From positions 1 through 26,721 of the forward strand of contig JAHFAK010000015.1 in the NCBI GenBank assembly GCA_023250585.1: a stretch of 26,721 nucleotides of DNA. The letters run 5' to 3'. This DNA is from Deltaproteobacteria bacterium. Its GTDB lineage: Bacteria > Bdellovibrionota_F > JAHFAK01. Of the stretch, positions 3,124 to 19,109 are shown in pieces (the first letter of the stretch is position 1; each line of letters starts with the position of its first letter). Both the position numbers and the translations under genes were made by a program. Below the pieces are notes generated by a model that was given only the letters and a program-made list of their open reading frames with translations, was not told where the DNA came from and searched no databases.

Positions 3124-3864
3124 CTATTCTTCTGGAGGGATATCTCGTAACATGCTTCTATTTCTTATTCTTACAATACGTGCTGTTGTTACATTTAAAA
3201 AATGAAAAAATCGTGCTCGTAGATATCGAGACATAGAATCGATTTTATTTCTTTCGGGAGGTATAGACTGAACCAAAATATTTACCGAGAATAAAGGAGC
3301 TTCATTCCGTCGCACCAACGGCATATCTGTTATAGGAAAATTTCCAATCATTGCTGTTTCCTGTGGATCCAATTTATAGTCAGTGCAGGCCTCATTAAAT
3401 GCTTCTAACGACGGTTTACCCATTCTTGATTCTATTATAGTGATCCCAGCTTGTCTTAAAGTCTCTAAACGTAGAGAATTTGGTGAATTCGTAAAAATAA
3501 AAACAGCAATACCTCCCTTCTTATAACTTGCCAATGTAGTATCGGTTACTTCAGGAGGAATGTCTGCATATGGAGCGACTAATGTTCCATCTAAATCAAA
3601 AATAACATTTTGTATTGGAGGTTTATTTAGTTTCTCTCTTATCCTCACAAATTCAGCAAATGTAGGTACTCTTTCTAAAAAAGCATCAAAATCATGAGGA
3701 CGACTTCCCAGAAATAATTCGACCGCACTTCTAAACTTTGCGTATGAGTATCTTTCTCTATTTGGGTTTTTGTGAGCCCCAGGGTTAAATACATCAGCAC
3801 AACCCAGTGCAGTTTCATAAAAAACACATACACTTACAATAATTAAAAAAAACTTTTTAACCAT
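3124..3864 (-). CDS. Exported HAD-superfamily phosphatase-like protein
   Basis: 246 residues. Residues 1-21 form a signal peptide (KK, hydrophobic stretch, ALG before Cys22), so the protein is probably periplasmic or, if Cys22 is a lipid site, a lipoprotein. The HAD domain starts near 84: motif I DLDGT (D90, D92), motif II TN (125-126), motif III Lys in MGK (K150) and motif IV GNFPITD (174-180). Families of this type normally have GDxxxTD; here the first Asp is Asn175 while D180 is kept, so metal binding may be altered. Residues 25-80 are an N-terminal cap or linker I do not recognise. The substrate is unknown. Most HAD hydrolases of this kind are cytoplasmic, so export is notable. Confidence 0.8.
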   Translation of the reverse strand: MVKKFFLIIVSVCVFYETALGCADVFNPGAHKNPNRERYSYAKFRSAVELFLGSRPHDFDAFLERVPTFAEFVRIREKLNKPPIQNVIFDLDGTLVAPYADIPPEVTDTTLASYKKGGIAVFIFTNSPNSLRLETLRQAGITIIESRMGKPSLEAFNEACTDYKLDPQETAMIGNFPITDMPLVRRNEAPLFSVNILVQSIPPERNKIDSMSRYLRARFFHFLNVTTARIVRIRNRSMLRDIPPEE

Positions 3865-5660: not shown

Positions 5661-5903
5661 ATGAGTAGCAGAACTGCAAGCCAAGCACGAGCAAAATTAT
5701 ATAGACTTATTGACGAAGTTGCAGAATCTCATGAACCAATCATGATCACGGGAAAGAGAAATAATGGGGTTCTTATTTCTGAAGAAGACTGGAAATCAAT
5801 AGCAGAAACTCTCTATCTTACGTCAATTCCCGGAATGAGAGCGTCGATTAAAAAAGGCATGGAAACTCCTCTTTCGAGGTGTTTAAAGAAGCTTAATTGG
5901 TAA
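5661..5903 (+). CDS. Antitoxin, Phd/YefM family
   Basis: 80 residues, normal family length. The N-terminal part (MSSRTASQARAKLYRLIDEV, 1-20) is the DNA-binding YefM fold, followed by ESHEPIMITGKRNNGVLISEEDW (23-45), the family signature strand-helix. The C-terminal tail with TSIPGMRASIKKGMETPL is the toxin-binding segment. It neutralises the downstream RNase and, with it, represses the operon. AAGGAG lies 6 bases before the ATG. The stop codon abuts the toxin ATG (TAAATG), so translation is coupled. Confidence 0.92.
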   Translation: MSSRTASQARAKLYRLIDEVAESHEPIMITGKRNNGVLISEEDWKSIAETLYLTSIPGMRASIKKGMETPLSRCLKKLNW

Positions 5904-6164
5904 ATGTGGAAAATAGTTTATACAAATCAAGCAGCAAAAGATGCAAAAAAATTAAAACGAAGCGGGCTAAAAAAAGAGGCCGAAAAACTTCTTTCATTAT
6001 TAGCAAAAAATCCATTTACGATACCTCCACCGTATGAAAAATTACTCGGTGATTTAACAGGGGCATATTCTCGAAGAATCAATATCCAACATCGACTTGT
6101 TTACCAAGTTTATAAAGCTGAAAAAACTGTAAAAATTCTACGAATGTGGACTCATTATGAATAG
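5904..6164 (+). CDS. mRNA interferase toxin, YoeB-like (RelE superfamily)
   Basis: 86 residues, typical for Txe/YoeB. Toxins of this family bind the ribosome and cut mRNA in the A site. Visible features: PPYEKLLGDLTGAYSRRI (about 42-59) aligns with the family's EPLKxxLxGxWSRRI, supplying the catalytic Glu; QHRLVYQV (62-69) gives the conserved Arg; and the C-terminal THYE supplies the His-Tyr pair (H84, Y85). All key residues look intact, so it should be active when freed from the antitoxin. The start directly follows the antitoxin stop with no separate ribosome binding site. Confidence 0.92.
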   Translation: MWKIVYTNQAAKDAKKLKRSGLKKEAEKLLSLLAKNPFTIPPPYEKLLGDLTGAYSRRINIQHRLVYQVYKAEKTVKILRMWTHYE

Positions 6165-6350: not shown

Positions 6351-6429
6351 TCTTGTAAAAATGGCACTATTATTGCATGTATTAACAAATTATGGTCAAA
6401 TGTATAACTAACCAGTAAGGAGATTTGCT

Positions 6430-8136
6430 ATGAAATATATATTAAAAACGCGCCTTGCTTATTTTGGTATTTTATTCTTTATTTTCGGAAGCTTCAATGG
6501 TCATAGCGTTGATATTTTTAATAAGAATATGGAAACGCATAAACCGTTGATTGATGGTGAACAACTGATTAAAATCATTGATCTTTGCCAGGCAAACCAT
6601 AATGACTCAGAATGCAAAACAATGATAAAAAGACTGCAAAAATTGCAAGGAATAGATCATACAGTATATACGATTATTCAACCATGTTTCGACGATCCCT
6701 TTTCACAAGGCTGCACAGAGTCTAAAAAAATCCTTAAGAAAATAAACGATCAGAATAAGCAAAAAAAGAAAATAGAAATCGAAAGAAAAAACAAAGAGAA
6801 AGAAGCTAAGGATCTAGAAAAGGCAGCAGAGACAAAAAACATTACTGAAAGAACCCAAAATCTTGATCGTCAATATACAATAAAGGATATCAAAAATTGT
6901 AGAGCATCAATAGATACTCCACAATGTACTAAGGCGCATAAATTTGCAACTTCATTACGAAAGTATCTCGATGAAATACAATATGATTCACTTATACAAC
7001 AGATTATGGGTGATCTGTATAAATATGGAGATCTCATAGATGAAGGATCTTTAAAATATTTTGACCAAAGAAGAGGTCCTTTAGATGATGATCAAGAAAT
7101 AATTGTAAATCTATTCTTTTTTAATAAAAAAGTAAGGATTACGAAAATTTTTAATCTTGATAACCATTCACACACAGAGCTCCTCAGACTTCTTCTTGAA
7201 TTAGATCTTGCAACTATTACTGAAAACAAAATAGCGTTGAATAAATATTGGATAAATTCTTATTCATTAGCAAATAATAAAGTCATGTATCTCCTCAATG
7301 ATTATCCTCAAGAACGATTGATTAAGAGTGATACAAATCCTGAGGGAAAGTCATCAGCGTTGTTATCGGAAACAAGCCATAGATTATTACGAAGGATAGA
7401 ACAAGATTATAAGACAAAAAGAATAAACTCTGACGGTATCGTTGCTGACTTTGGTTCAGGAACGGGAATTCAAGCAATCGCATTATTACTGCTCTATCCA
7501 GATATACAAAAAGCTATCGGACTTGAAATCGATGATCATAGTATGGATGTATCGGTTTTAAACGCACAACTGAATAATGTATATACAAAATTTGTTGTTC
7601 TAAATAACTACGATACCAATACTCTAACTAAAGAATTAAACGGAGAAAAATTAACTTTTGCTATCTCCAATCCCCCTTTCAATGTCGTACCTGAAAGTTT
7701 GAGTAAATATTTTTCAGTTTTTGGTGATGGAGGTGAACGAGGAGAGTTTGTAACAGGAATATTTTTAGAACAAGTTAATCAACATTTAGCTGATACTGGC
7801 GCTTTTTTATTTTATTCTGATCTACCTATAAATAGTAAGAAAGAATTTCTCATACAAAACTTGATTAAAGAAAAACTCCCCAATGGATTTGAATGTGCTA
7901 TTTTAGTCGATGCAACTGCCGGTTATAGTACAGATCAATATATCATAGGATTCACTGATTTTATTATCAAAAATAATCCTAAAAAAAGCTTTGCTCCTGA
8001 AGTAGCAACGCTTTTTTTAAGCCTCAATTTAAAAAAACATGATGTAATCGATTTTAAATCAGCAGTCGTTTATGTAAAGAAAAGCAAAAACAAATCTGAA
8101 TTTACTTTTGATGAATGGGATTTTAATGCTTTATAA
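6430..8136 (+). CDS. Exported NPPF-type SAM methyltransferase with CX8C repeats
   Basis: 568 residues. A signal peptide is seen at 1-26 (basic start, hydrophobic 10-20). The N-terminal region has three units with cysteines exactly nine residues apart, C53/C62, C86/C95 and C157/C166, each starting a helix-like stretch; six of the seven cysteines are in these pairs, as expected for disulfides outside the cytoplasm. Residues 100-145 are a charged Lys/Glu-rich probable coiled coil. The C-terminal domain is a class I methyltransferase: motif I VADFGSGTGIQA (338-349), acidic GLEIDD (364-369) and motif IV SNPPF (413-417). NPPF/Y motifs are known from enzymes that methylate amino groups of adenine, guanine or glutamine (RsmC, PrmC, DNA N6-adenine enzymes). 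Substrate unknown. TAAGGAG precedes the ATG. A secreted enzyme acting outside the cell is an inference. Confidence 0.75.
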   Translation: MKYILKTRLAYFGILFFIFGSFNGHSVDIFNKNMETHKPLIDGEQLIKIIDLCQANHNDSECKTMIKRLQKLQGIDHTVYTIIQPCFDDPFSQGCTESKKILKKINDQNKQKKKIEIERKNKEKEAKDLEKAAETKNITERTQNLDRQYTIKDIKNCRASIDTPQCTKAHKFATSLRKYLDEIQYDSLIQQIMGDLYKYGDLIDEGSLKYFDQRRGPLDDDQEIIVNLFFFNKKVRITKIFNLDNHSHTELLRLLLELDLATITENKIALNKYWINSYSLANNKVMYLLNDYPQERLIKSDTNPEGKSSALLSETSHRLLRRIEQDYKTKRINSDGIVADFGSGTGIQAIALLLLYPDIQKAIGLEIDDHSMDVSVLNAQLNNVYTKFVVLNNYDTNTLTKELNGEKLTFAISNPPFNVVPESLSKYFSVFGDGGERGEFVTGIFLEQVNQHLADTGAFLFYSDLPINSKKEFLIQNLIKEKLPNGFECAILVDATAGYSTDQYIIGFTDFIIKNNPKKSFAPEVATLFLSLNLKKHDVIDFKSAVVYVKKSKNKSEFTFDEWDFNAL

Positions 8137-8355
8137 GAAACCAACTAATATCTTGACATTATTATACTCACATCTTCCAGGCGCATATATGTTTAATCCT
8201 CTCTCGATTCCCAAATGAGGTATCATCGCAGGGAAAGGTGTGACACTACTTCCCGCCCGTTCAGGTATATGCATATCATCTAGAAGACAAAGTGTATTAA
8301 GTACGCTGTAATAATCGGCTATTTCTTTTAAACCTCGAAGAAAATTGGAAAGATA
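8131..8355 (-). pseudogene. Decayed ORF fragment on the minus strand
   Basis: A 74-codon open frame without a suitable start runs from just after a TGA (8356-8358) to TAA at 8131-8133, overlapping the methyltransferase stop by a few bases. It encodes YLSNFLRGLKEIADYYSVLN at its start and later PAMIPHLGIERGLNIYAPG, a composition that looks protein-like for such AT-rich DNA. The same frame continues upstream through several stops (8356 and beyond). I do not recognise the family. It could be the C-terminal remnant of a gene broken by the neighbouring repeats, or chance. Confidence 0.3.
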
Positions 8356-8509
8356 TCAGTTCATGCGTGCTCTTAATTATATTGTTTTAATGTCGAATCA
8401 TATGCATTTAGGTTCTCTCTGACCAACAAAAAATACTTGGATCTTCTCCTACAACCCTCGTTACATAAATATGCTTACACCCCAACGGTCGGGAAGTAGC
8501 GTCACACCT
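8236..8509. repeat. 274-bp region bounded by 24-base inverted repeats
   Basis: AGGTGTGACACTACTTCCCG (starting 8236, 24 bases to 8259) matches the reverse complement of 8486-8509 at 22 of 24 positions. GGGAAA precedes the left repeat and the right one is followed by TATTTTTCCCC, so similarity extends a little further. It looks like a mobile element with terminal repeats and a decayed interior, but the left arm also lies inside the decayed ORF. No transposase or target duplication is seen. Confidence 0.45.
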
Positions 8510-8698: not shown

Positions 8699-9169
8699 AT
8701 GCAAGCAAAGTATAAAAAACGTGTCCGAGAACAGCTCGATACAACATTAAAACATTTTGATTACCTCAAGACATTTCAGTCTCCGCCAAAAGGCTGGATT
8801 CAAGCTATTCGTAATGCGCTTGGCATGACTGGGGAACAACTTGCTCGTCGTTTACGTGTCAATAAACAGCGGGTCTCACGTATCGAACACGACGAGAAAC
8901 GAGGAAAACTTACTTTAGAAACGATTCAAAAAGTTTCACAAGCCCTCGATTGTATTTTTGTCTATGGGTTTTTACCCAGGGTGAGTCTTACGCATACGGT
9001 ACAAAAACAAGCTATGAAACTTGCAAAAAAACGTATGGCACGTACGAACCAAACCATGAGATTAGAAAAACAAGAGCTTGAAGAAAGTGAAAAAGAAAAG
9101 TCTTTTAAAGAACTTGTTGAAGATATTATTAATGAAATGCCAAAATCGCTTTGGGATATACATGACTAG
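8699..9169 (+). CDS. Mobile mystery protein A (HTH regulator)
   Basis: 156 residues, normal for this family. PPKGWIQAIRNALGMTGEQL (29-48) followed by ARRLRVNKQRVSRIEHDE (49-66) is an XRE-type helix-turn-helix with the family's characteristic PPxGWIxAIRxALGM lead-in. LDCIFVYGFLPR (83-94) is the other conserved block. The C-terminal half is charged and helical. The family is always found with mobile mystery protein B, a Fic-domain protein, and behaves like the regulatory or antitoxin half of a mobile pair; that role is inference from genomic association. It overlaps the B gene by 8 bases. Confidence 0.88.
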   Translation: MQAKYKKRVREQLDTTLKHFDYLKTFQSPPKGWIQAIRNALGMTGEQLARRLRVNKQRVSRIEHDEKRGKLTLETIQKVSQALDCIFVYGFLPRVSLTHTVQKQAMKLAKKRMARTNQTMRLEKQELEESEKEKSFKELVEDIINEMPKSLWDIHD

Positions 9170-9502
9170 ACAAAAACGAATTCAAGGAATAACTCCGCTC
9201 CACCCAGATGAGAGTGAAGGGCTTTTACTAACACACCTGACAGATCGAACGGAGTTCGATCGATGGGAACAAGATAATATCAATGAAGCTCTTGCATGGG
9301 TAGAAAAACATAAACCTCATGATATTCTCAATGAATCTTTTCTAAAATTACTCCATAAAAAAATGTTTTTCATCAGCCTGCTTTTAGTTGGGGAAATGCT
9401 CATCTTATTCACCACAATGATGACAGGAAAAGATATATTGACGCTTTAGTTGCTGCGGACCGCGGTGACTACAGAAAACTTCTGGAATTCGTAAGATCAT
9501 AA
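9162..9502 (+). pseudogene. Mobile mystery protein B (Fic family), broken
   Basis: ATG 9162 overlaps the A gene stop (ATGACTAG). The first 69 codons match the family's N-terminus: GITPLHPDESEGLLLTHL (8-25), then DILNESFLKLLHKKMF. From about 9366 the reading frame changes: frame 1 ends at TAG 9447-9449 in a meaningless hydrophobic tail, while another frame from 9371 encodes HQPAFSWGN, DDRKRYIDALVAADRGDY and KLLEFVRS and ends at TAA 9500-9502, the normal C-terminus of the family. The central Fic core, with HPFxxGNGR, is missing from both frames. Relative to about 195-200 residues for intact members, some 80-90 codons are deleted and the junction is out of frame. AMPylation activity must be lost. 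Confidence 0.85.
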
Positions 9503-9523: not shown

Positions 9524-10837
9524 CTAACTTTTGACTTCAATAAGATTAACCGCATTACACTCTGCCTTGATACCATGTGACCGCAAAGCCAAAACTGCTT
9601 GGTCAACATAGCCTTCTTTTTCTAATAGCTCATTAATTTCAAGCGCAGAGTTATTGAATTCAGCAAGATCTAATGATTGTGTCAAAGGTAACCAACGATT
9701 TGATTGGGGATCTTTTTTTCCCAATCCATGTTCTTCAACAAGTTTTACAAAACGAGAATCAAAAGCATTAATAAATTTTTTATCCTCTCGTAATATTTTC
9801 AAATAACGGATGAGAGTATCTTTTTCAGCATATGAGCGATGCATAGAAAAAAAGATCCACGGACGGAGAGGATACAGACAATCAATACTGAAACTAAACG
9901 ATACTTCATTAAGCACTCCATCTGCTTTTTTGTACGTAAAATATGCAGAACTGAGGCCTTTGATCCAGTCAGTACCGCAAAAGAACATGCCGCCTTCTTT
10001 TAAAATTTTACTTATCCAATCAAGCGTCTGAAGACGGAACGTTTCATCATAGTAAACGCTGACATTGAATAAACGCGCGACAGCGATATTATCAATCTCA
10101 ACACTCCCAATTTTGCCAGTCATAAAAGTTACATTCGGCCGAGTATAGAGTTTAAACGGATTACAAAAAAGATGATGCCCCTCTATTTCTATTTCGTCCG
10201 TACGTTTGTCTGTCTTGAATTTTGCAAAAAGCTTTTTAGCCGCGCTCACTATATCTTCACGAATTTTTGTTATCTCATCTGCTGAATTTTGTAATGTCAC
10301 TTTACGATGAAGAGCATCTGACCACATAAAACGTAAATTTTCTTGCCCATCAAAGCATCCATAATAACCATGATTATTGGTAACAAGATAAGGATAAAAA
10401 GATGGATCCACGCCGATAACATTCCAGTTCGATAAACGCTCAGCTGCTTCCACTGTCGTAATTGGTGGAAAACCGCAGCCAAGATCGAGGAGGCACGGAC
10501 GCGTGCCCGACGGTACTGGAAGGCTTGCTATCAGCTGATCAATACGCATATGCCGATCTGGGGTTGTAATGGGCGGAATGAATGGTGCCTTAGAATCAAG
10601 AAACGTATTACGTGGCAGGCCTTCGGCTAACTCAAAAACGAAATGAGGCGATAATTCAGTAATCCCCAAGCCAGCCTGACGGTAACGTGATAAAATAATA
10701 TCCACACCTTCAAAATATTTCGGGTTATTATACGTTTCAAGTTTCGCAAGAATAGCAAGAAAATCAGCAGATAACCCCCTATTAAAATATCGCTGATTAA
10801 TATCATTAAGAAATTCTGCACTCTGTTTAATTACCAT
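9524..10837 (-). CDS. SAM-dependent methyltransferase, function unknown
   Basis: 437 residues from the chosen start; an upstream in-frame ATG at 10900 exists, but AGAAAGGA lies 9 bases before the ATG at 10837. The SAM-binding motif I is LLDLGCGFPP (116-125) and the following acidic strand end is VIGVDPS, so it is a class I Rossmann methyltransferase. GGMFFCGTDW further on resembles the strand 5 region. Long N- and C-terminal extensions contain no motif I know, and no signal peptide or membrane segment is present. It is divergent from manB, and the 160 bases between hold the manB promoter. Substrate cannot be predicted. Confidence 0.75.
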   Translation of the reverse strand: MVIKQSAEFLNDINQRYFNRGLSADFLAILAKLETYNNPKYFEGVDIILSRYRQAGLGITELSPHFVFELAEGLPRNTFLDSKAPFIPPITTPDRHMRIDQLIASLPVPSGTRPCLLDLGCGFPPITTVEAAERLSNWNVIGVDPSFYPYLVTNNHGYYGCFDGQENLRFMWSDALHRKVTLQNSADEITKIREDIVSAAKKLFAKFKTDKRTDEIEIEGHHLFCNPFKLYTRPNVTFMTGKIGSVEIDNIAVARLFNVSVYYDETFRLQTLDWISKILKEGGMFFCGTDWIKGLSSAYFTYKKADGVLNEVSFSFSIDCLYPLRPWIFFSMHRSYAEKDTLIRYLKILREDKKFINAFDSRFVKLVEEHGLGKKDPQSNRWLPLTQSLDLAEFNNSALEINELLEKEGYVDQAVLALRSHGIKAECNAVNLIEVKS

Positions 10838-10935
10838 GTTTCGATTCCTTTCTTTTGTCATATGATTAAAGCATTGCCACCAACTGTGTGTCAAAGGCAC
10901 CTATATTTCTAAAAAGTGCCCTCGCTGACTTCCGG

Positions 10936-17929: not shown

Positions 17930-18523
17930 TTATTCTTTCATTTCTTGTCGGAGGCCGGTGAGAACAGCTTTGGCGATTTCTTTAAGCGTTTCAAAAACCC
18001 CAACCCCTTCAATTGCTTTTGCTTCAAAATCTTTGCAATGATAGGTGTTTAAAAGTTCTCTAAGTTCTTTTGTTTCAGTAATATTTGGAAGATCTCTTTT
18101 GTTATACTGAATAACATGCGGAAGAGTTTCCAAATCGTACCCTTGCTCTTTCAGATTGAGCTTTAAGTTTTCCAAACTTTCAAGATTTGCTTCTATACGT
18201 TCTACCTGAGAATCAGCGACAAAAACAATGCCATCAACGCCTTTGAGAATAAGCTTGCGAGAAGCATCGTAAAATACCTGACCCGGAACGGTATATAGAT
18301 GGAATCGTGTTTTAAAACCTTTTACCTCGCCCAACTCTAAAGGTAAAAAATCAAAAAAGAGTGTACGTTCAGTTTCAGTGGCTAAAGAGATCATTTTTCC
18401 TTTTGATTCAGGGTTTACTTTTTTATAAATGAATTGCAAATTGGTTGTTTTACCACTTAACCCCGGTCCATAGTATACAACCTTGCAATTAATTTCTTTG
18501 GTTGAATGATTTATAAATGACAT
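17930..18523 (-). CDS. mglA: MglA-type small GTPase
   Basis: 197 residues, normal for MglA. This Ras-like GTPase sets cell polarity and drives gliding or pilus motility in Myxococcus, and has related roles elsewhere. GPGLSGKTT (19-27) is the P-loop, [15 protein letters not shown] (48-62) is the switch I region with the intrinsic Arg53, TVPGQ (78-82) carries Gln82, and NKRD (141-144) gives guanine specificity. The stretch [20 protein letters not shown] is nearly invariant in MglA. It is thus likely active. AGAAAGGA precedes the ATG. The upstream gene encodes a roadblock-like protein, as expected for an MglB-type GTPase-activating partner. Confidence 0.95.
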
Positions 18524-18538
18524 GCGAATCCTTTCTGT

Positions 18539-18578
18539 TACGAAGTAGCATTCAAACGCTAACTTCGTTGACTTCGTA
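18539..18578. promoter_or_regulatory. Inverted repeat before mglA
   Basis: TACGAAGT (18539-18546) pairs with ACTTCGTA (18571-18578), and a further ACTTCGTT lies at 18562-18569. It occupies most of the 67-base gap between the roadblock-like gene and mglA. In RNA it would form a weak hairpin upstream of the mglA ribosome binding site; it may tune expression of the second gene. Confidence 0.3.
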
Positions 18579-18590
18579 TCATACTACCTA

Positions 18591-19109
18591 TCAATGTTTA
18601 CGTGTAGCTTCTTTTAATACACTGCCGTCTCTATCCATGAGATAGAGTGTTTTCTCTGACCTTTCTGGAGGTCCAACAAGTTTTTGTATTTCAGTCATAA
18701 GTTTTTTCGTTTTTAATTTAATAAAACCAAAAGGTACTTCATTTGAAAAAATAATACCTAAGACGGTACTCTGGCTCAGCAAAATAAAATAGCTGGATAC
18801 ATATTCTCCAGTGAAAAGAAGGGATTCGCTTTTATTCTTTTCTATCATTGTAGAAAATGATCGCAGACAATGAAGCGCATTAAGACTAAACGATGCAAGA
18901 GAGAATCTTGAAAAATCCTCTTCTTTCGTTTTAGAAAAAATTACTTTACCTTTGTTATCAGCAATAAAGACACATTGAGCTTTGAGTAAAAATACGCACT
19001 CTCGTAACGCTGACTCAAGCCCATCTTGCTTGCCTTCATTAATGACTTCTTGAAGTTCTAATGTAACGTTTTGCATAAAATTATGTTTATGAGTACATTC
19101 AAAATACAT
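18591..19109 (-). CDS. Roadblock/LC7-like protein, putative MglB partner
   Basis: 172 residues. The arrangement AQCVFIADNKGKVIFSK (44-60), a helix, SESLLFTGEYVSSYFILLSQ (94-113) and STVLGIIFSN, then a helix, follows the alpha-beta roadblock fold, in which MglB stimulates GTP hydrolysis by MglA. Sequence is diverged and the assignment leans on gene order with mglA. The tail after about 145 (GPPERSEKTLYLMDRDGSVL) is extra. Start uncertain: MQNVTLEL 11 residues in is an alternative and neither has a good ribosome binding site. Confidence 0.6.
   Translation of the reverse strand: MYFECTHKHNFMQNVTLELQEVINEGKQDGLESALRECVFLLKAQCVFIADNKGKVIFSKTKEEDFSRFSLASFSLNALHCLRSFSTMIEKNKSESLLFTGEYVSSYFILLSQSTVLGIIFSNEVPFGFIKLKTKKLMTEIQKLVGPPERSEKTLYLMDRDGSVLKEATRKH

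What the first reader, a model, noticed from the sequence alone, without database searches (positions are those of the whole stretch)
6430..8136. Exported methyltransferase with an NPPF active site and three CX8C units
A signal peptide, three cysteine pairs with identical spacing (53/62, 86/95, 157/166), a Lys/Glu-rich linker and a class I methyltransferase with DFGSGTG and NPPF motifs are in one protein. NPPF methyltransferases normally act on rRNA, DNA or release factors in the cytoplasm. Regular cysteine pairing suggests disulfides and therefore life outside the cytoplasm. A secreted modifier of host or neighbour molecules is possible. The presence of the parts is seen; the role is inference.
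Basis: partly seen in the sequence, partly recalled or inferred. Interest (0 to 1): 0.62.

Follow-up and report, generated by a model that had tools for sequence, protein, structure and literature searches.

The report
Exported methyltransferase with stapled helical hairpins
A bacterium from a barely sampled phylum makes an apparently intact methyl-transfer enzyme fused to an export signal and three short cysteine-braced helical hairpins, which suggests that an enzyme type normally kept inside the cell works outside it; target and methyl-donor supply are unknown.

Summary
The ORF at 6430-8136 (568 aa) has the only strong Shine-Dalgarno of its in-frame starts, a signal-peptide-like N-terminus, six of its seven cysteines in three CX8C pairs (53/62, 86/95, 157/166), a Lys/Glu-rich linker, and a C-terminal class I methyltransferase with intact DFGSGTG and NPPF motifs. 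The CX8C units are non-random (equal spacing P about 3e-4) and similar beyond the cysteines (P = 0.003), so they are a real internal repeat. AlphaFold2 places each pair symmetrically at or next to a helical-hairpin turn, with confidence for the first two only. The organism is a diderm whose phylum has two held genomes; it has VKOR-DsbA, a separate DsbA and secretins, so export and disulfides are feasible. The methyltransferase belongs to a broad PrmA/HemK-like group whose relatives (carbamoyltransferase fusion, carbamoyltransferase/NRPS locus, radical-SAM neighbour, groundwater MAG) lack the N-terminal module. No homologue of that module was found. Best reading: a Sec-exported, disulfide-stapled variant of a small-molecule/protein methyltransferase. 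A host-directed role has no positive evidence, and SAM outside the cytoplasm is the unresolved problem. No laboratory evidence exists.

The parts
6417..6422 (+). Shine-Dalgarno AAGGAG for the ATG at 6430
   Evidence: sequence; anti-SD duplex -9.2 kcal/mol, best of all in-frame starts
6430..8136 (+). whole gene, 568 aa: signal peptide + CX8C hairpin module + accessory domain + class I methyltransferase
6430..6507 (+). signal peptide, residues 1-26 (n-region MKYILKTR, h-region LAYFGILFFIFGSF, possible cleavage after GHS)
   Evidence: sequence; hydropathy; positive-inside rule; SignalP not run
6550..6651 (+). CX8C unit 1 (C53/C62), residues 41-74
   Evidence: AF2 helices 43-56 and 59-70
6649..6750 (+). 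CX8C unit 2 (C86/C95), residues 74-107
   Evidence: AF2 helices 77-88 and 93-
6742..6867 (+). Lys/Glu-rich linker, predicted as one long helix, residues 105-146
6862..6963 (+). CX8C unit 3 (C157/C166), residues 145-178
   Evidence: AF2 helices 151-158 and 164-182, low confidence
6997..7419 (+). accessory region before the methyltransferase, residues 190-330, partly shared with relatives
   Evidence: alignment with L028, L002, L006, L008; no Pfam family above cut-off
7420..8133 (+). class I methyltransferase domain, residues 331-568
   Evidence: Pfam MTS/PrmA, NCBIfam PRK14968-like 1.9e-11 below cut-off
7447..7467 (+). SAM-binding motif I DFGSGTG (340-346)
   Evidence: sequence; D340, G344, G346 invariant among four aligned proteins
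7669..7680 (+). catalytic-loop motif NPPF (414-417)
   Evidence: N414, P415, P416 invariant among four aligned proteins

Best explanation
A Sec-exported protein of a diderm bacterium. After signal-peptide cleavage, the cell's VKOR-DsbA system oxidises the three CX8C pairs, each stapling the turn of an alpha-helical hairpin, so that residues ~40-182 form a disulfide-stabilised helical module (binding, anchoring or scaffold). The C-terminal domain is a PrmA/HemK-like class I methyltransferase with intact SAM and NPPF motifs that works outside the cytoplasm, most likely on a small molecule or an envelope/secreted protein. Shown: gene, repeat, motifs, domain relations, presence of disulfide and outer-membrane machinery. 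Inferred: signal peptide cleavage, disulfides, catalytic activity, location, substrate. Not explained: where SAM comes from.
For: Start codon supported only at 6430; hydrophobic N-terminus with K/R before it; six of seven Cys in three CX8C units, repeat significant; AF2 single-sequence model confident (pLDDT 70-89) for residues 40-130 with Cys symmetric about the turns; one Cys in the remaining 378 residues against 4.6 expected (P = 0.05); VKOR-DsbA fusion and separate DsbA; Omp85 and four secretin matches; catalytic motifs conserved with relatives.
Against: No SignalP run; no homologue of the N-terminal module anywhere searched, so CX8C conservation could not be tested; SAM is made in the cytoplasm and no extracytoplasmic SAM supply was shown; all relatives of the enzyme domain look cytoplasmic; third hairpin is modelled with low confidence.
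Confidence: 0.5

Rival explanations
1. Exported, but no longer (or not mainly) a methyltransferase: the Rossmann domain is kept as a ligand- or SAM/SAH-binding receptor or structural part of an envelope protein whose active end is the hairpin module.
For: SAM is not expected in the periplasm (established knowledge); the domain is divergent, about 21-30% identical to relatives.
Against: DFGSGTG and NPPF are fully kept, which a non-enzyme would be free to lose.
Confidence: 0.2
2. Secreted modifier of host or competitor molecules (an effector-type methyltransferase), which would use SAM of the target cell.
For: Solves the SAM problem; bacterial methyltransferases acting in host cells are known (reviewed in PMC10117894); secretins present.
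Against: No host known; no effector-type secretion system was tested; the described effector methyltransferases are of other families; a Sec signal plus disulfides does not fit direct injection.
Confidence: 0.15
3. Cytoplasmic or inner-membrane-anchored enzyme facing the cytoplasm; the hydrophobic start is only an anchor and the cysteines bind metal or act as a redox switch (compare the CX8C pairs of CP12 and of MtrC).
For: All enzyme-domain relatives look cytoplasmic; SAM is there; CX8C pairs exist as redox switches (MtrC, PMC9973256; weak profile match to CP12).
Against: Positive charges precede the hydrophobic core, so the rest should face outside; no good internal start; Cys elsewhere nearly absent.
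Confidence: 0.15

Closest known systems
NC_groundwater MAG methyltransferase (L028 = L051, JACQOF010000085.1)
   Same: enzyme domain aligned over 292 columns, 27% identity, GIQAI...SNPPFN...GxGGxxG...HLA
   Different: no signal peptide seen, no CX8C module
PrmA / PrmC(HemK) / PRK14968-type methyltransferases
   Same: class I fold, motif I, NPPF/NPPY-type loop, GG..G after it
   Different: scores far below the curated equivalog cut-offs; PrmC is cytoplasmic and acts on release factors
Carbamoyltransferase-linked methyltransferases (fused in the same genome, L002; adjacent in Mycetohabitans, L008)
   Same: same enzyme superfamily, aligned through the SAM fold and partly before it
   Different: fused or next to carbamoyltransferase and NRPS genes; no export, no hairpin module
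Hcp / Sel1-like repeat proteins (HcpB, HcpC, COA7)
   Same: helical-hairpin repeats of about 36 residues tied by disulfides between cysteines a fixed short distance apart
   Different: no Sel1 signature, no Pfam match; Hcp proteins carry no methyltransferase
CX8C disulfides of MtrC and CP12
   Same: identical Cys spacing, proven disulfide in MtrC
   Different: single motif in another structural context, redox switch role
Secreted bacterial methyltransferases (Rv2966c, Rv1988, RomA)
   Same: methyltransferase acting outside the bacterial cell
   Different: other families and export routes; host targets shown there, none here

Membership tests
Class I SAM-dependent methyltransferase (Pfam MTS/PrmA clan) | profile match above curated cut-off | tested here: met
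   PF06325 31.7 bits (cut-off 22), PF05175 30.7 (cut-off 23)
Class I SAM-dependent methyltransferase (Pfam MTS/PrmA clan) | SAM motif I and NPP[FY] loop intact | tested here: met
   DFGSGTG 340-346, NPPF 414-417; aligned and conserved with relatives
Class I SAM-dependent methyltransferase (Pfam MTS/PrmA clan) | methyl transfer from SAM | not testable with these tools
   needs an assay
PrmC / HemK release-factor methyltransferase | equivalog score | tested here: not met
   TIGR03534 27.8 bits vs cut-off 199.1
PrmA (L11 methyltransferase) | equivalog score | tested here: not met
   TIGR00406 29.7 vs 183.15; a separate PrmA-like protein lies in the genome (L057)
Sel1-like repeat / Hcp proteins | Sel1 repeat profile | tested here: not met
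   no Sel1 match among Pfam hits to E = 10 for residues 26-192
Sel1-like repeat / Hcp proteins | SLR superhelix | tested here: inconclusive
   low-confidence models, best Z 6.4 to a designed protein, no Foldseek hit at E <= 0.001
Exported, disulfide-bonded protein | signal peptide | tested here: inconclusive
   n/h/c-regions and single strong start; no SignalP
Exported, disulfide-bonded protein | cysteines paired in the fold | tested here: inconclusive
   symmetric about hairpin turns in AF2; no coordinates for S-S distances
Secreted effector methyltransferase | delivery into and activity on a host cell | not testable with these tools
   needs experiments; lifestyle of the organism unknown

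The most novel reading that the evidence does not exclude
A true extracytoplasmic methyltransferase: an NPPF-type enzyme exported by Sec and folded with three stapled hairpins, which modifies envelope, secreted or foreign molecules with SAM from outside the cell's cytoplasm.
Probability: 0.35. Interest if true: 0.65.

Novelty: new variant of a known kind. Interest (0 to 1): 0.42.

Why it matters
If active where it is sent, it raises the question of SAM outside the cytoplasm and adds a disulfide-stapled repeat not matched by any Pfam profile. The question is directly testable with one protein in E. coli. If inactive, it is an example of an enzyme fold reused in the envelope.

Tried and rejected
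Relatives of the full protein: none in phages, in viral contigs, or in genome contigs with the protein alone; a focused alignment found one MAG, the same gene as L028. The first alignment had no usable stretch. N-terminal module: no other copy in the own genome, none in plasmids, none in PDB; the repeat profile met only weak PDB matches (salivary 10.7 kDa protein E = 0.04, CP12 E = 3-4), taken as chance or analogy. Fold searches gave nothing above common helical matches; the full-length AF2 model of the enzyme part failed (pLDDT < 50). Defence system: no PADLOC match. ATP/ADP translocase as sign of intracellular life: one TLC-family protein of 412 aa, matched only over its C-terminal half, judged not diagnostic. 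Paper searches for exported methyltransferases with COG4798 or 'extracellular methyltransferase' found nothing. Internal start giving a cytoplasmic form: rejected for want of an SD.

Full report
What is there. The gene at 6430-8136 encodes 568 residues without interruption. Of the in-frame starts only 6430 has a strong Shine-Dalgarno (AAGGAG, -9.2 kcal/mol against -3.3 or weaker). Residues 1-26 read as a Sec signal peptide: MKYILKTR, a hydrophobic core and GHS before a possible cleavage site; the hydropathy is a little below that of the window's evident exported proteins and above that of its cytosolic ones. SignalP could not be run.

The cysteines. Six of seven cysteines lie in three CX8C pairs. 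Equal spacing of three successive pairs is unlikely by chance (P about 3e-4 for any spacing, 1.5e-5 for this one), and the sequence around the pairs is also similar when the cysteines are left out (P = 0.003). So the three units are one repeat. The first two are 33 residues apart, the third 71 further on, about two such steps; the gap is filled by the Lys/Glu-rich helix. AlphaFold2 from the single sequence is confident for residues 40-130 (pLDDT 70-89) and puts C53/C62 and C86/C95 three and two residues from the ends of facing helices; C157/C166 is similar but modelled with low confidence, and C157 falls just past its helix in the second model. S-S distances were not available.

The enzyme domain. 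Residues about 331-568 match Pfam PrmA and MTS above cut-off and, far below the curated equivalog cut-offs, PRK14968, PrmA and PrmC in NCBIfam. It is therefore a class I methyltransferase of unassigned specificity. Relatives are a carbamoyltransferase-methyltransferase fusion in the same genome (L002), a protein next to radical-SAM genes in the only other held genome of the phylum (L006; the radical-SAM naming of the neighbours is my reading of their sequence), a Mycetohabitans protein next to a carbamoyltransferase and an NRPS-type gene (L008) and, closest in motif detail, a groundwater MAG protein (L028, 27% over 292 columns). None has the signal peptide or the CX8C module. D340, G344, G346 and N414-P416 are invariant among the four proteins aligned. 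The neighbours of the relatives suggest small-molecule substrates; this is inference.

Is export plausible in this organism? The genome has a membrane VKOR fused to a DsbA domain with CPAC, and a second DsbA, Omp85 proteins and four secretin matches. So it is a diderm with the means to make disulfides and, possibly, to move proteins further out. The rest of the protein has one Cys where 4.6 are expected (P = 0.05), weak support for life in an oxidising place.

Interpretation. The best-supported account is a Sec-exported protein with a disulfide-stapled helical module and an apparently intact methyltransferase. Export and disulfides are likely; catalysis outside the cytoplasm is open, because SAM is made inside. 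Either SAM is available outside (leakage, lysis, a partner cell), or the domain binds something without methylating it, or the protein faces the cytoplasm after all.

Comparison with the known. Disulfide-tied helical-hairpin repeats are known in the Hcp branch of Sel1-like proteins (PMC3851747) and in COA7 (PMC6505684); this module resembles them in design but has no Sel1 profile match and no fold match. A CX8C disulfide is known in MtrC (PMC9973256). Secreted bacterial methyltransferases that act on host chromatin are reviewed in PMC10117894. From my own knowledge, some class I methyltransferase-like proteins with signal peptides (COG4798) are annotated in proteobacteria; this was not tested and no paper was found. 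The combination seen here was not found elsewhere in the collections searched.

Limits. Only two genomes of the phylum are held, the N-terminal module has no homologue to test conservation, the enzyme part has no good model, and nothing has been shown in the laboratory.

Noticed in passing
8236-8509: 274-bp element with 41-nt terminal inverted repeats (85% complementary), like a MITE or insertion-sequence remnant, just downstream of the gene.
   Followed up: partly
3124-3864, - strand: YqeG/HAD-IIIA-like phosphatase with a signal-peptide-like N-terminus: a second normally cytoplasmic enzyme type that looks exported.
   Followed up: partly
5661-6164: YefM/YoeB-type toxin-antitoxin pair directly upstream.
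   Followed up: yes
8699-9449: mobile mystery protein A (complete) and B (only the first third matched, apparently truncated).
   Followed up: partly
L060 (G000:C5:6825-7043): Another methyltransferase of the genome whose ORF has a strongly hydrophobic segment near its N-terminus; true start not settled.
   Followed up: no
9524-10900, - strand: Divergent methyltransferase-like protein with LDLGCGFPP motif, only a sub-threshold Pfam match and a weak PADLOC mad2 match.
   Followed up: no
17930-19109, - strand: MglA-like GTPase with an MglB-like neighbour.
   Followed up: no
L020 (G000:C55): 412-aa TLC-family (ATP/ADP translocase-like) transporter matched over its C-terminal half only.
   Followed up: partly
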